A DNA stretch of 64,000 nt from Massilia aquatica. GTDB taxonomy: Bacteria > Pseudomonadota > Gammaproteobacteria > Burkholderiales > Burkholderiaceae_D. The stretch covers positions 124,001 to 188,000 of the forward strand of contig NZ_VVIW01000011.1 of assembly GCF_011682045.1 (NCBI RefSeq), given 5' to 3'. This document shows, piece after piece, positions 19,824-43,637 of the stretch. The notes beneath the pieces were generated by a model. The model was not told the DNA's origin and ran no database searches. It saw only the letters and a list, made by a program, of their open reading frames with translations. The number at the start of each line of letters is the position of its first letter. Position 1 is the first letter of the stretch. The position numbers were made by a program, and so were the translations under genes.

Positions 19824-20471
19824 TTACTTGTTATTTTCGATAAAAACCAGATGCCGTTCCGCTTGCAGCCCTGGAACCTGGATAGGCCGCAATTCGCTCA
19901 CTTTCCAGTCGCTCGGCAGCCGCTCCTGTTCGTCCGCCGGCGCCGTGCCTTTCAGGGCGATGAATTTGCCGCCCTCGGCCAGCAGGTGTCCGGACCAGTT
20001 CACAAAGTCCGACAGGTCGGCGAAAGCGCGCGAGGTGATGACGTCGAATTTGTGCGGCACCTGCAATTGCTCCACCCTTGCCGTGTGCACGGTCACATTG
20101 GCCAGGCCCAGTTCGGCTTTGACTTGCGTGAGGAAGGCGGTTTTCTTGTGTACGGTGTCGATCAGCGCCACTAACATGCTCGGCCGGGCAATCGCCAGCA
20201 CGATGCCGGGCAAGCCGCCCCCTGCCCCGACGTCCAGTACACTGGTCGCGCCCTCAAAAGCGGATACGGCGGCCAGAGAATCGAGCGCATGGTGGGTCGC
20301 CATCTGCATCGGATCGCGCACCGAGGTCAGGTTGTACACCGAATTCCATTTGTGCAGCAGTGCCAGGTAGTCGAGCAGTTGCCCGTGTTGCTGTTCGTTC
20401 AGGTCCAGCTTGAGTTCTTTGATGCCATTGGCCAGCACCGGCGCAATGGCGTTACGGTCGAAAAACTTCAT
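19824..20471 (-). CDS. rsmG: 16S rRNA (guanine527-N7)-methyltransferase RsmG (GidB)
   Basis: The 215-residue protein has the SAM-binding glycine motif [15 protein letters not shown] (about 80-94) and the family segments [15 protein letters not shown] and [14 protein letters not shown]. RsmG methylates G527 of 16S rRNA. Its start overlaps the mnmG stop by four bases (ATGA), as in many proteobacteria. Confidence 0.96.
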
Positions 20472-22399
20472 CCTGCCAACTCCTCGTTGAGGGTGGCAAA
20501 GCCTTTTGCGCCCCGTTTTTTCAAATGCACCAACAGCAGCGAAATGGCCGCCGGCGTGACGCCCGAGATGCGCGAAGCCTGCCCCAGGGTTTCCGGACGC
20601 TGCTTGTCGAGCTTCTGGCGCACCTCGATCGACAGCGCGCTGATGTCGAGGTAGTCGAATCCGGCAGGCAGTTTCAGGTTTTCGTAGTGGTCGTGACGTT
20701 CCACTTCCTTGGCCTGGCGGTCGATATAGCCGGCATATTTGAGCTGGATTTCGACCTGTTCCTTGACTGCGGGATCCTCCACGCCGGGACCGGCCAGGGC
20801 CTGGCCTTCCACGCCGGACAGGCCCATCAGCTTGTCGTAGTCCACCCCCGGGCGGCGCAACAGGTCGGCCAGCGAGTATTCGCGCTCGATGGCCTGGCCG
20901 ATGACCCTTTCCGATTCGGTGCTGGCGAGGATGCGCGGGTTAACCCACGTGGTGCGCAGGCGCTCCAGTTCCACGGCGACCGCTTCGCGCTTGCGCTCGA
21001 AGGCTTCCCACTGAGCGTCGCCAACGCAGCCGAGTTTGCGGCCGATTTCGGTCAGGCGCATGTCGGCATTGTCTTCGCGCAGGCTCAGGCGGAACTCGGC
21101 GCGGCTGGTGAACATGCGGTACGGCTCGGCCACGCCTTGCGTCGTCAAGTCATCCACCAGCACGCCGAGGTAGGCTTCGGAACGGCCCGGAACCCAGGCA
21201 TCCTGGCCCTTGGTCAGCAGCGCCGCATTGATACCTGCCAGCATGCCTTGCGCCGCCGCCTCTTCGTAACCGGTGGTGCCGTTGATCTGGCCGGCAAAGA
21301 ACAGGCCCTGCACAGCCTTGGTTTCGAGCGAGGTTTTCAGGCCGCGCGGGTCGAAGTAATCGTATTCGATGGCATAGCCAGGGCGCAGGATGAAGGCGTT
21401 TTCCATGCCCTTCATCGAGCGCACCAGGGCGATCTGCACGTCGAACGGCAGGCTGGTCGAGATCCCGTTTGGATAGAATTCGTTGGTGGTCAGGCCTTCC
21501 GGCTCGAGGAAAATCTGGTGCGATTCCTTGCCCGAGAAGCGGTGAATCTTGTCTTCGATCGACGGGCAGTAACGCGGCCCGACGCCTTCGATGACGCCGG
21601 TGTACATCGGGCTGCGGTCCAGACCGGCACGGATAATGTCGTGCGTTTGCGCATTGGTATGCGTAACCCAGCACGGCACCTGGCGCGGGTGCATGCCGGT
21701 GTTGCCCATGACCGAGAATACCGGCACCGGATCGAGGTCGCCCGGCTGCTCGGCCATCTGCGAAAAGTCGATGCTGCGGCCGTCGATGCGCGGCGGCGTG
21801 CCGGTCTTCAGGCGGCCTTGCGGCAGCTTCATTTCCTTCAGGCGGGCCGAGAGCGAAATCGCCGGTGGATCGCCAGCGCGGCCGGCCGAGTAGTTTTGCA
21901 GGCCGACGTGGATTTTCCCGTCGAGGAAAGTGCCGGCCGTCAGCACCACCGCGCGGGCGCGGAACTTGATGCCGATCTGGGTCACGGCGCCGACCACGCG
22001 GTCGCCTTCGAGCATCAGGTCGTCAACGGCCTGCTGGAACAGCCACAGGTTCGGCTGGTTCTCCAGGCGCGAACGGATGGCTTGCTTGTACAGGATGCGG
22101 TCGGCTTGCGCGCGGGTAGCGCGTACGGCAGGACCTTTGGACGAGTTCAGGATACGGAACTGGATACCGGATTCGTCCGTGGCAATCGCCATGGCGCCGC
22201 CCATGGCGTCGACTTCCTTGACCAGATGGCCCTTGCCGATGCCGCCGATGGATGGGTTGCAAGACATCTGGCCGAGCGTCTCAATGTTATGGGTAAGCAG
22301 CAAAGTCTTCTGGCCCATACGGGCAGAAGCGAGCGCAGCCTCGGTGCCGGCATGGCCGCCGCCGACGACGATGACGTCGAATTCAGTTGGAAATAGCAT
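20468..22399 (-). CDS. mnmG: tRNA uridine-5-carboxymethylaminomethyl modification enzyme MnmG (GidA)
   Basis: The 643-residue FAD protein starts with the dinucleotide-binding motif [14 protein letters not shown] (about 9-22). It shows the MnmG signatures [27 protein letters not shown] and [16 protein letters not shown]. With MnmE (not in the window) it modifies the wobble uridine of several tRNAs. It heads mnmG-rsmG, and three parS-like sites lie 100-190 bp upstream of its start. Confidence 0.98.
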
Positions 22400-33249: not shown

Positions 33250-33265
33250 TGTTTCACGTGAAGCA
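33250..33265. other. parS-like site 4 (outlier)
   Basis: TGTTTCACGTGAAGCA has a single mismatch from the parS consensus and is the best match in the window. It sits between the MarR gene and the stop of the hydrolase gene, 10.7 kb from the cluster and about 8.6 kb from the proposed origin. Confidence 0.85.
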
Positions 33266-40811: not shown

Positions 40812-41849
40812 TTATAGTGTACGCATCTCGGCCACCAGCATTTGCATCAGTTGGGCCACCGGCATCGGCCGCGCCCGCCGGATCTCGGCGCCCGCCCAGA
40901 GCGACATCAGTTCGGTGTCGCCCCGTTCGGCAGCTGCTGCGCGAATGCCCGTGGTCAGTGCGTTTTGGACAGGATACGCTGGAACTTGCTTCTCAACACT
41001 TTCCATCTTGCGCATAAAAGTGTTTTCCAGGCCGCGCGCGTAACGGCCGCTGAAAGCGCGGGTCAGGCGCGTTGGCGTCTCGCGCGCCTCGATCAGCCGC
41101 TGTTTGTAGGCGGGATGAATGCCGGATTCGTCGGTCACGATGAAGGCGCTGCCCATTTGCACGGCCTGGGCACCCAGCGCCAGCGCTTCGGCAATATCGA
41201 CTCCGGTCATGATGCCGCCGGCGGCAATCGTTGGCATCTTGACGGCTTGCGCCACCTGGGGCCAGAGTTCCTTTCCGCCCAGGATGGCGTCTTCTTGCGG
41301 TCCAAGAAAGGTGCCGCGATGGCCGCCGGACTCGATACCCGATGCGATCACGGCGTCGGCGCCCACATTTTCCCAGGCCAGCGCTTCTTCAACCGTTGTC
41401 ACGGTGCCGATCACATAGACCCCGGCATCGTGCAAACGCTCGACCTGGATGGGATTCAAGATACCGAAGGTAAAACTGGCAGCCGCCGGATGCAGTTCGA
41501 TCAAGGTCTCGAACTGGGCCTCGAAGTCCTGGCACCACTGTTTCGGTACGGGCAGGTTGTCCCAGCCCAGGCTTTCCCAGACCGGGCGCAGCAGTTCAAC
41601 CGCAGCGCTCACCTCTTCCGGAGACGGGGAAGGCGTCTGGAGCACAAAAAAATTCAGCAAGAACGGCTGGTTGGTCATCGACCTGACCCGGCCGGCCTCG
41701 TCGCGCAAGGCTGCGGGCGACAACAACGATCCTGCCAGGCAACCCAGGCCGCCGGCATTCGATACAGCGGCCACCAATTCGGGCCGGCTGGCGCCGCCAG
41801 CCATGGGTCCTTGCAAAATTGGAAACTTAAACAACGCATGCAGATCCAT
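40812..41849 (-). CDS. Nitronate monooxygenase (2-nitropropane dioxygenase family)
   Basis: The 345-residue FMN protein shows FPILQGPMAGGASRPELVAA at the N-terminus, the catalytic SGIESGGHRGTFLG motif (about 185-198), and AAGGIMTGVDIAEALALGAQ. These enzymes oxidise alkyl nitronates such as propionate 3-nitronate. GGAGG lies before the ATG. Its start is 29 bp from the first DnaA box of the proposed origin, so its promoter may overlap it. Confidence 0.87.
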   Translation of the reverse strand: MDLHALFKFPILQGPMAGGASRPELVAAVSNAGGLGCLAGSLLSPAALRDEAGRVRSMTNQPFLLNFFVLQTPSPSPEEVSAAVELLRPVWESLGWDNLPVPKQWCQDFEAQFETLIELHPAAASFTFGILNPIQVERLHDAGVYVIGTVTTVEEALAWENVGADAVIASGIESGGHRGTFLGPQEDAILGGKELWPQVAQAVKMPTIAAGGIMTGVDIAEALALGAQAVQMGSAFIVTDESGIHPAYKQRLIEARETPTRLTRAFSGRYARGLENTFMRKMESVEKQVPAYPVQNALTTGIRAAAAERGDTELMSLWAGAEIRRARPMPVAQLMQMLVAEMRTL

Positions 41850-41877
41850 ACCACCTCCGTCAAGGTTCGAAAGGGCC

Positions 41878-42092
41878 TGTGGATAAGCCTATTGATATCC
41901 ACAGGCACCGTTTGTGGATAAACGCGACTTTATGCACAGGCCAAAATTTGTCCCAGATCGGTACCAGCCGGATACAGAGCTGATCACCGACTTATACCTC
42001 TCGCAAGCTCATGATTTCTAGCGCATTTTTGCCATTATCCACAGAAAAAGGCACCTGTTAACAACTACTACTAAATCTATATTTAACCTTTT
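41878..42092 (+). repeat. Origin array, copy A of tandem duplication
   Basis: The order is box(-) at 41878, ATATCCACA at 41895, box(-) at 41913, TTATGCACA at 41930, a 96-base spacer, TTATCCACA at 42035, then TACTACTAAAT and an AT-rich tract. Every main element reappears 402-403 bases to the right in copy B. The shared text includes GATATCCACAGG and CGACTTT..TCACAGG-like stretches. Confidence 0.75.
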
Positions 42093-42280
42093 TAGGTAAA
42101 CCATCAAGACCTTTGAAAAACGAAGTCAAAAACTCCAAAGGCCAAAAAACGGGAAAAATTTTTCTTTGCTGAACAAAAACTCAAAGTTTCCCAAAAAAAA
42201 GAATCGGCCACAAAATTGTCCAAGTCACTTTTCTGAAGACGAAAAAAAAGCCGCGAACGGCTCCTCTGGAAGACAGGACA

Positions 42281-42495
42281 TGTGGATAAGTCGATGGATA
42301 TCCACAGGATGAGATGTGCAAAACCATCGACTTTGTTCACAGGCAAATTTTTGTCCAACAGTCATCCTTTGAAAGTACAGGCTTTTTCCAGCTACTTTTT
42401 CGACGCTAAACGCTTGATCCTGTTGATAAAAGCGGACTTATCCACACAAAAACGGCCGTTTACTATCACTACTAAATTTGTATACATACTACTTA
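42281..42495 (+). repeat. Origin array, copy B of tandem duplication
   Basis: Elements are box(-) at 42281, ATATCCACA at 42298, a decayed box TGTGCAAAA at 42315, TTGTTCACA at 42333, TTATCCACA at 42438, then ACTACTAAAT and a longer AT tract with TATACATACTACTTATATAA. Two of the boxes are weaker than in copy A, but the unwinding-type AT tract is stronger. Confidence 0.75.
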
Positions 42496-42766
42496 TATAA
42501 AACCCTAAACCCCGGCAAAGCAGTGCATAACCTCGAAGTCATCCACAGCAACATCCTCCAAAAGCCAAAAAACCCGGAAAAACAAGCGTTTACCAGCCCA
42601 TCCAGGCAAAAACGCAGAACTGCCGATGCGCTGTAAAGCCCCTGGAGGCACCGCGACGGCCACAACAGCGCTGCTGGAGTGCAAGCCGGGAGTGTCTGCA
42701 GAAATCGACGCTGGCGGCCTCCTGCGCGCCTTGCGAAGCTTGCAGTGCACGCAGAACTGTTTATCC

Positions 42767-42794
42767 TTGTGGAAAACTCCGGACTTACCCACAT
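42767..42794. repeat. 28-bp DnaA-box-like pair, intergenic copy
   Basis: The unit begins TTGTGGAAAA and ends TTACCCACAT, an inverted pair of DnaA-like boxes. It matches 43027-43054 at 25 of 28 positions. That second copy lies inside the mtnN coding region, exactly 260 bp away. Confidence 0.7.
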
Positions 42795-42824
42795 GCACAT
42801 TCATCAAAAAAGGTTCTGCAAAGC

Positions 42825-43637
42825 ATGAATACAGGCAAAAACATACGTTTAGGCATCATCAGCGCCTTGCACGAAGAACAGGAAGGGCTCGTGGAAGGCA
42901 TGCAAGGCCCCGCCACGCTTATCCATGGCATGCGCAACTACGCATCAGGGCAAGTCGCTGGCATCGACGCTGTGTGCGTTCTGTCGCGGATTGGCAAGGT
43001 TGCCGCCGCCATGACCGCGACGACGCTTGTGGAAAAGTACGGAGTTACCCACATCCTGTTCACCGGGGTTGCCGGTGCCGGCGATGCGGGCGTGAAGGTG
43101 GGCGACATCGTGGTGGCCGAATCGCTGGTCCAGTACGACATGGACGCCAGTCCCCTGTTTCCCCGCTTCGAGGTGCCGCTGACCGGTTTGTCGCATTTCC
43201 AGTCCGACTCGCAGATGAGCCAGCGCGCCGCCAGTGCGGCGCTCGACTTCCTGGACAGGGATTTTGAAACGGTGATCGATGAGGCGGAACGGGCCGAATT
43301 CGGCCTGGAGCGGCCACGGGTGCACCGCGGCCTGATTGCCAGCGGCGATCAGTTCATCAGCAAACGCGCGCACCTGGCGCAGCTGAGCGATGCGCTGCCG
43401 GGTTTGCTGGCGGTGGAAATGGAAGGCGCGGCAGTGGCCCAGGTGTGTTTTGAGCTGGGCATTCCGTTTGCGGTGATCCGGACGATTTCAGATAACGCGA
43501 ATGAAGAGGCGGCGACCGATTTCGTGCGTTTCGTGAAATCAGTCGCCTCTCGTTATGCTTTTCATATCGTCACGCGTTTCTGCGCCGAGCTGAAAAGCGG
43601 CCGGATTCAAGCCAGCAGGGAATCGGCCGGGGTGTAG
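42825..43637 (+). CDS. mtnN: 5'-methylthioadenosine/S-adenosylhomocysteine nucleosidase
   Basis: The 270-residue protein has the family N-terminus IRLGIISALHEEQEGL with the catalytic glutamate region, TGVAGAGD, the substrate-binding AVEMEGAAVAQVC (about 192-204) and the general-acid aspartate in RTISDNANEEA. It cleaves MTA and SAH to adenine and a thioribose derivative. It is somewhat longer than the usual 230 residues, with extra sequence at both ends. The ribosome-binding site (AAAAAGG) is weak and distant. The stop overlaps the convergent ald gene by 31 bp. Confidence 0.88.
   Translation: MNTGKNIRLGIISALHEEQEGLVEGMQGPATLIHGMRNYASGQVAGIDAVCVLSRIGKVAAAMTATTLVEKYGVTHILFTGVAGAGDAGVKVGDIVVAESLVQYDMDASPLFPRFEVPLTGLSHFQSDSQMSQRAASAALDFLDRDFETVIDEAERAEFGLERPRVHRGLIASGDQFISKRAHLAQLSDALPGLLAVEMEGAAVAQVCFELGIPFAVIRTISDNANEEAATDFVRFVKSVASRYAFHIVTRFCAELKSGRIQASRESAGV

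What the first reader, a model, noticed from the sequence alone, without database searches (positions are those of the whole stretch)
41850..42824. Probable chromosome origin away from dnaA, between nitronate monooxygenase and mtnN genes
Seen: about 12 DnaA-box-like 9-mers (six exact TTATNCACA), AT-rich tracts down to 24-27% G+C, and no supportable gene in 975 bp. Known: such clusters with an AT-rich unwinding region mark bacterial oriC, and parS sites usually lie within tens of kb of it. Four parS-like sites are 8.6-20 kb away here. Inferred: this is oriC. dnaA, dnaN, gyrB, rpmH and mnmE are absent from the 64 kb, so the origin would be separated from dnaA by at least about 22 kb.
Basis: partly seen in the sequence, partly recalled or inferred. 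Interest (0 to 1): 0.9.

Follow-up and report, generated by a model that had tools for sequence, protein, structure and literature searches.

The report
Duplicated chromosome origin far from dnaA
The gap is very probably where this Massilia-like bacterium starts copying its chromosome, far from the usual dnaA gene, and it is built from two conserved copies of a start module instead of one.

Summary
In detail: 12 DnaA boxes (up to 1 mismatch) in 1 kb, six exact. The oriC reading is supported: parS-like sites lie 8.6-19.4 kb away, mnmG-rsmG-parA-parB are in the window, and dnaA is on another contig with one box near it. In seven relatives the homologous site is 49-720 kb from dnaA, and in 6 of 7 nearer than dnaA to the point opposite a dif-like site. 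In G010 a skewed motif changes strand between 310 and 427 kb, the site being at 424 kb. Two modules, 62% identical, each carry inverted box pairs, a perfect box, GTTWAC, DnaA-trio-like repeats and an unstable AT-rich stretch, and are equally conserved. Two or three modules occur in 98 of 118 stretches from Oxalobacteraceae and related bins, tandem or inverted, sometimes with a gene between. Against: skew does not flip at the site in the window or clearly in G013, one genome favours dnaA, and trio spacing exceeds the published limit. New variant of a known kind.

The parts
41878..42525 (+). Conserved origin core (two tandem modules)
   Evidence: Conservation in 11 same-genus sequences falls off outside this stretch; the core model R1 has two matches at E up to 0.01 in the own genome, both here
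41870..42131 (+). Module A
   Evidence: nhmmer 267 bits (the model was built with this module among others); aligned to module B at 62% over 317 columns
42274..42545 (+). Module B
   Evidence: nhmmer 264 bits (same remark)
41878..41903 (.). Module A inverted DnaA-box pair 1 (41878 -, 41895 +, starts 17 bp apart)
   Evidence: 41878-41938 conserved 0.913
41913..41938 (.). Module A inverted DnaA-box pair 2 (41913 -, 41930 +)
42035..42043 (+). Module A trio-side DnaA box TTATCCACA, 157 bp from the first box
42065..42073 (+). Module A DnaA-trio-like CTACTACTA, 21 bp after the box
   Evidence: sequence, counted by hand
42058..42108 (.). Module A AT-rich unwinding stretch
   Evidence: fifth least stable separate 51-bp stretch of the 64 kb; 24% G+C over 50 bp at 42058
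42281..42306 (.). Module B inverted DnaA-box pair (42281 -, 42298 +)
   Evidence: conserved 0.917
42421..42446 (.). Module B second pair (42421 - TTATCAACA, 42438 + TTATCCACA = trio-side box)
42463..42474 (+). Module B trio-like CTATCACTACTA (interrupted), first CTA 16 bp after the box
   Evidence: sequence, counted by hand
42459..42509 (.). Module B AT-rich unwinding stretch
   Evidence: second least stable separate 51-bp stretch of the 64 kb
40812..41849 (-). Nitronate monooxygenase gene, left flank
   Evidence: PF03060
42825..43637 (+). mtnN-type nucleosidase gene, right flank
   Evidence: PF01048
22499..22586 (.). Three parS-like sites (22499, 22536, 22571)
   Evidence: one mismatch each
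33250..33265 (.). Fourth parS-like site
   Evidence: one mismatch
20468..22399 (-). mnmG (gidA)
   Evidence: PF01134
19824..20471 (-). rsmG (gidB)
   Evidence: PF02527
18939..19709 (-). parA
   Evidence: PF13614
18025..18910 (-). parB (upper end approximate; the listed ORF runs to 19296)
   Evidence: PF02195, PF17762, PF23552

Best explanation
This is the chromosomal replication origin of a Massilia-like Oxalobacteraceae bacterium, far from dnaA and near mnmG-rsmG-parAB and the parS-like sites. It consists of two homologous, directly repeated modules about 403 bp apart. Proposed working (inferred): in each module DnaA binds the inverted box pairs and the perfect TTATCCACA 157 bp downstream; DnaA then spreads from that box onto single-stranded CTA (3'-GAT-5') repeats and opens the AT-rich stretch next to them, where helicase is loaded. 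I think both modules are kept as working unwinding units. Shown by sequence: the duplication, its parts, their equal conservation and their wide presence in the family. Inferred: DnaA binding, unwinding, and that both copies open or cooperate. The confidence below is for 'origin made of two homologous modules'; that both modules open I put at about one half.
For: Box cluster beyond chance. R1 has two matches at E up to 0.01 in the 7.47-Mb genome, both here (114 of 324 first-look candidates were scored). Four of the genome's five parS matches with one mismatch are 8.6-19.4 kb away; mnmG, rsmG, parA, parB in the window. One box in the 20 kb around dnaA. Site closer than dnaA to the antipode of a dif-like site in 6 of 7 relatives, e.g. 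Janthinobacterium sp. LM6 9 against 364 kb, G013 15 against 404 kb. In G010 the orientation of AGGGCAGGG changes between 310507 and 427026, the cluster being at 424 kb; ln-likelihood -2.8 for the site, -6.5 for hemE-priA, -19.4 for dnaA. In G017 codon-3 skew is negative in the three bins below 5.417 Mb and positive in the seven above, the modules being at 5.4177 Mb. Two or more modules in 98 of 118 stretches and in 20 of 24 family genomes. Both modules conserved alike, both among the five least stable stretches. In G054, of another family, a weaker single match lies about 0.2 kb past the dnaA match.
Against: Octamer skew shows no sign change at the site in the window, and in G013 it is mixed at about 1.39-1.70 Mb and mostly positive from there, the site being at 1.785 Mb; in G017 the same score is positive, not negative, in the three stretches at 5.10-5.28 Mb. 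The best GGGNAGGG switch in G013 is 1.55 Mb, about 5 ln units better than the site, which is itself 7 better than dnaA; cumulative GC skew of the samples has its minimum at 1.255 Mb. G079 favours dnaA (126 against 221 kb), and in G010 the site is 1.36 Mb from the dif antipode. The dif-like site of G017 was missed by the first pattern and found only with a looser one at 3 mismatches. parS matches with up to two mismatches are no more frequent than in the reversed control (24 against 29), so only the one-mismatch cluster counts. The trio run starts 21 bp from the box in module A, beyond the published 16 bp, and is interrupted in B. No binding, unwinding or read-depth data.
Confidence: 0.85

Rival explanations
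1. It is the origin, but works as a bipartite origin: only one module is unwound and the other is a DnaA-binding, looping or regulatory part, as in Helicobacter pylori or Bacillus subtilis. (A variant of the best explanation; its share is not additional to it.)
For: Bipartite origins with the unwinding element in one subregion are described (passages of PMC8235120). Module B in the window has an interrupted trio run (sequence). In 14 of 126 neighbouring pairs the module starts are over 2 kb apart, in L196 with a GGDEF-EAL gene between, like dnaA between H. pylori subregions.
Against: Both modules keep box, GTTWAC, trio-like repeat and AT-rich stretch with equal conservation, and both are among the least stable stretches.
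Confidence: 0.35
2. The origin is the DnaA-box cluster between hemE and priA on contig C19; the mtnN-side modules are a DnaA titration or reactivation locus.
For: Eight boxes with at most one mismatch in about 0.6 kb there; a hemE-adjacent oriC candidate is listed for Ralstonia pickettii (PMC4403523, part 1 read); the G013 GGGNAGGG switch at 1.55 Mb is near its hemE (about 1.516 Mb).
Against: No R1 match there. The one-mismatch parS sites are on the contig of the mtnN-side site. In G013 hemE is about 255 kb from the dif antipode against 15 kb. G010 favours the mtnN-side site by 3.7 ln units, resting mainly on one motif, hemE placed there by one box only. In G017 codon-3 skew is positive from 5.417 Mb on, hemE-priA being at 5.746-5.748 Mb.
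Confidence: 0.07
3. The origin is at dnaA as in many bacteria, and this cluster is accessory.
For: G079 dif antipode is nearer dnaA; cumulative GC skew minimum in the G013 samples at 1.255 Mb, nearer dnaA than the site.
Against: One box in the roughly 3.5 kb around dnaA in 11 of 12 same-genus loci examined, two in the other; G010 rejects dnaA by 16.6 ln units; 6 of 7 dif tests; parS location.
Confidence: 0.03

Closest known systems
Bacterial oriC with basal unwinding system (BUS), Bacillus subtilis type (PMC8287927)
   Same: Perfect DnaA box, spacer, 3'-GAT-5' type trios, then an AT-rich stretch, in that order
Bipartite oriC of Helicobacter pylori and B. subtilis (PMC8235120)
   Same: Two DnaA-box clusters in one origin, sometimes with a gene between
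   Different: In those origins the unwinding element is in one subregion; here both subregions hold an element of that kind, and the two are homologous copies
Origins separate from dnaA: Cupriavidus metallidurans (PMC2864759), and E. coli (mnmG side, recalled)
   Same: Origin or skew transition away from dnaA, with clustered boxes; in E. coli near mnmG
   Different: Here between nitronate monooxygenase and mtnN, and 49-720 kb from dnaA in seven relatives

Membership tests
Bacterial chromosomal oriC | Cluster of DnaA boxes beyond chance | tested here: met
Bacterial chromosomal oriC | Unstable AT-rich stretch next to the boxes | tested here: met
   second and fifth least stable separate stretches of the window
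Bacterial chromosomal oriC | parS and parAB within tens of kb | tested here: met
   also two perfect parS 6-9 kb from the modules of G017
Bacterial chromosomal oriC | Opposite the dif site | tested here: inconclusive
   Not testable in the draft; relatives: nearer than dnaA in 6 of 7, within 91 kb of the antipode in 5 of 7
Bacterial chromosomal oriC | Strand composition switches at the site | tested here: inconclusive
   Consistent in G010 and in codon-3 skew of G017; unclear in G013, not seen in the window, mixed in G017 octamers
Bacterial chromosomal oriC | Replication starts there (autonomous replication, depth peak) | not testable with these tools
   no reads, no experiment
BUS (DnaA box plus DnaA-trios) | At least three contiguous 3'-NAN-5' trios near a DnaA box | tested here: inconclusive
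   225 of 241 distinct cores have such a run starting within 34 nt of the box. By hand on the sequences: window A has three, window B at most two
BUS (DnaA box plus DnaA-trios) | Such a run within 16 bp of the box (criterion of PMC8287927) | tested here: not met
   58 of 241 distinct cores pass; neither window module does (by hand). So BUS-like, not filed as a strict member
Bipartite oriC | Two box clusters, unwinding element in one | tested here: not met
   By sequence each module has its own AT-rich stretch and trio-like repeats; activity untested
datA or DARS-type DnaA regulatory locus | Boxes without an unwinding element, away from the origin (recalled definition) | tested here: not met
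   AT-rich stretches and trio-like repeats present; parS within 20 kb

The most novel reading that the evidence does not exclude
Oxalobacteraceae chromosomes start replication from an origin that carries two or three separately competent unwinding modules, for instance one per helicase or as redundant firing sites. The multi-module state has been renewed by repeated duplication or gene conversion in different genera and tolerates tandem, inverted and gene-interrupted layouts.
Probability: 0.4. Interest if true: 0.82.

Novelty: new variant of a known kind. Interest (0 to 1): 0.62.

Why it matters
The bacterial origins described in the papers I looked at have one unwinding element. A family in which that element is duplicated, equally conserved and found in tandem, inverted or gene-split layouts makes it directly testable whether one origin can open at two places, how two helicases are loaded, and what spacing or orientation is needed. 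It also gives an annotation hint: in Oxalobacteraceae, records rotated to dnaA need not start at the origin.

Tried and rejected
GC skew and GGGNAGGG in sampled G013 were too noisy to place the origin; codon-3 skew was unclear in G013 and clear in G017, where I had set one bin edge at the module site; octamer scores gave a mixed zone in G013 and mixed values in G017. Other own-genome box clusters (C66 xseA-exbB, C19 hemE-priA, C14, C24, C6) hold no R1 match at E up to 0.01. In G022 and G023 no module was found, and in G001 and G020 one.

Papers. Searches on an Oxalobacteraceae origin (67 was a general Betaproteobacteria and Bordetella search) showed none, but one search listed 10 of 41 papers and the three papers were not opened. 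Searches on duplicated unwinding modules showed none, but listed 20 of 43, 20 of 1,104, 15 of 20 and 25 of 2,664, and the terms 'two bus' and 'two due' brought mostly noise. The library holds open-licence papers only. Seen: PMC8287927 introduction, part 1 of 2 of results and passages; PMC4403523 part 1 of 2; PMC2864759 and PMC8235120 passages; all others in listings only.

Rows left out before counts, and circularity. One search kept modules with strict box spacing (37; G017 and G018 gave none); from these came the two nhmmer models, the pattern and, with further cores, R1 (50 cores, some from genomes searched again, which match by construction). One search kept 290 of 304 nhmmer hits by a rule that itself asks for the box and GTTWAC with at most one mismatch each. 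The tree used 74 modules of 34 sequences that I chose. Stretches are mostly 8 kb and can cut an origin (20 of 118 show one module, 21 if hits under 40 bits are dropped). In one search gaps count as mismatches.

Full report
Observation. The gap 41850-42824 holds six exact TTATNCACA (0 of 100 shuffles of the window reach the 7 found in all) and 12 boxes with at most one mismatch within 1 kb. It is AT-rich, and its right side is poorly conserved (0.385 over 42526-42767). The window is contig C2:124001-188000 of a 7.47-Mb, 99-contig genome. Same-genus genomes have contigs of the same length as titled contigs of Massilia soli, M. atriviolacea and M. frigida, so I take it to be Massilia.

Origin evidence in this genome. 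The module model R1 has two matches at E up to 0.01 in the genome, both here (114 of 324 first-look candidates scored). Of five parS matches with one mismatch, four are 8.6-19.4 kb away; with two mismatches allowed the count (24) is below the reversed control (29), so only the one-mismatch group counts. The window carries mnmG, rsmG, parA and parB. dnaA is on contig C9, with one box in the 20 kb around it. From the contig ends the two are at least about 40 kb apart.

Origin evidence in relatives. dnaA and a dif-like site (pattern recalled; one hit per genome, none in the reversed control) were placed in seven genomes whose main chromosome is one contig. G017 gave no hit with the first pattern and one at 3 mismatches with a looser one. 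Distance of module site / dnaA from the dif antipode in kb: LM6 9/364, G013 15/404, G040 43/92, G012 71/243, G017 90/629, G079 221/126, G010 1364/1750. G079 goes against, and G010 has unequal arms. In G010 a KOPS-type 9-mer, chosen from G013, occurs 98 times + and 43 -. The 100 listed places are 94 + and 6 -: up to 310507 they are 5 - and 1 +; from 427026 to 5.44 Mb they are 93 + and 1 -. The module site is at 424 kb, dnaA at 38 kb and the likely hemE-priA cluster at 185 kb (placed by its single exact box, as in G013). A simple model, which takes the 41 unlisted places (4 +, 37 -) as the other arm, gives ln-likelihoods of -2.8, -19.4 and -6.5. In G017, another genus, codon-3 skew is negative in three bins below 5.417 Mb and positive in seven bins from there to the record end, where dnaA is; the modules are at 5.4177 Mb, and I had set a bin edge there. 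Two perfect parS lie 6-9 kb from those modules. Of the 118 stretches, 17 also show a parS with at most one mismatch.

Evidence against. In G013 the octamer score is negative up to about 1.39 Mb, mixed to 1.70 Mb and mostly positive beyond, while the site is at 1.785 Mb; the window shows no sign change at 42 kb; in G017 the three stretches at 5.10-5.28 Mb have the wrong sign. The GGGNAGGG switch in G013 is best at 1.55 Mb: ln-likelihood -119.2, against -124.5 for the site and -131.6 for dnaA. Rearrangement on the dnaA side could explain this, but I did not show that.

The duplication. Splitting the gap at 42250 and aligning its halves gave 62% identity over 317 columns (E 2e-15). Each module has an inverted box pair with starts 17 bp apart, further boxes, and TTATCCACA 157 bp from the first box. 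Then come GTTAAC (A) or GTTTAC (B), CTA repeats and AT-rich DNA. Those AT-rich stretches are the fifth and second least stable separate 51-bp stretches of the 64 kb. Across 11 same-genus sequences box pairs are 0.91-0.92 identical in both modules, trio and AT-rich parts 0.77 and 0.81, the DNA between modules 0.56, and mtnN third codon positions 0.69. So both copies look equally constrained.

Distribution. None of the 106 control stretches L079-L184 gave a hit. mtnN lies between the modules in four Undibacterium stretches and two bins (L194, L199, L207, L270; L217, L240), and between inverted modules in L216, L254, L294 and L297. In 14 of 126 neighbouring pairs, most in Duganella, Rugamonas and relatives, starts are over 2 kb apart; in L196 a GGDEF-EAL gene lies between. 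Of 304 module hits 290 gave a core; 281 of these have the exact box and 288 GTTAAC or GTTTAC, partly by the selection rule. In one search, 20 of 24 family genomes (this one included) have two or more R1 matches, 2 have one and 2 none; of 16 genomes of other families 2 have one. In a 150-genome order sample, scored with stricter filters, 24 match; adjacent pairs outside the family appear in G116, G156 and G117. In G054, of another family, the single weak match (E 3e-6) starts about 0.2 kb past the dnaA match, which links the module to origin function.

History. In the FastTree of 74 modules, A copies (support 0.56), terminal B copies (0.90) and the middle B copies of Janthinobacterium, Rugamonas and Duganella (0.996) group across species of the Massilia-Janthinobacterium-Duganella group. 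In Herminiimonas, Noviherbaspirillum, Glaciimonas, Paucimonas and one Burkholderiales bin the two copies of a genome are sisters; in Collimonas and Herbaspirillum they group within the genus, and Undibacterium is mixed. Several supports are low. This suggests old paralogues in one group, and repeated duplication or gene conversion in others.

Mechanism. Shown: sequence anatomy and constraint. From published work on the BUS (PMC8287927): DnaA on a box extends onto 3'-GAT-5' trios and opens DNA. Inferred: that it does so here in each module. 225 of 241 distinct cores have three or more contiguous trios starting within 34 nt, but 58 of 241 within the published 16 bp, and neither window module does, so I call the modules BUS-like.

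Known and new. Origins away from dnaA are known (C. metallidurans passages; E. coli recalled), as are bipartite origins with the unwinding element in one subregion. An origin with several homologous, equally conserved unwinding modules I did not find in my searches, which saw listings, often partial, of open-licence papers only. I rate it a new variant of a known kind.

Noticed in passing
L006 8000-8586 (own contig C19), L074 8337-9513, G013 near 1.5155 Mb: A second DnaA-box cluster between hemE and priA: 8 boxes in this genome, 10 in G017, without the origin module. A possible DnaA regulatory site or relic origin; hemE is the oriC neighbour in Caulobacter (recalled).
   Followed up: partly
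L004 9379-10091 (own contig C66), L076 8113-8825: Seven (here) or eight (G013) DnaA boxes with at most one mismatch, all in one direction, between xseA and exbB: a datA-like titration candidate.
   Followed up: partly
window 42768-42793 and 43028-43053: Two similar inverted box-like pairs (17-bp starts), one just before mtnN and one inside its 5' coding part; the inner one recurs at the same place in 14 of 17 loci listed, perhaps only because the protein is conserved.
   Followed up: no
G116 C1:17799 and 18254; G156 C70:2019 and 2447; G117 C77:3818 and 4069: Adjacent double matches of the core model in two other families of the order, one of each pair weak, so multi-module origins may not be limited to one family.
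   Followed up: no
G010 C1: Strongly unequal replication arms in a same-genus genome (about 5.1 and 2.4 Mb between module site and dif-like site).
   Followed up: partly
L196 2259-5051: A sensor GGDEF-EAL gene lies between the two origin modules in a Duganella genome; about 3 kb separates them in several relatives.
   Followed up: partly
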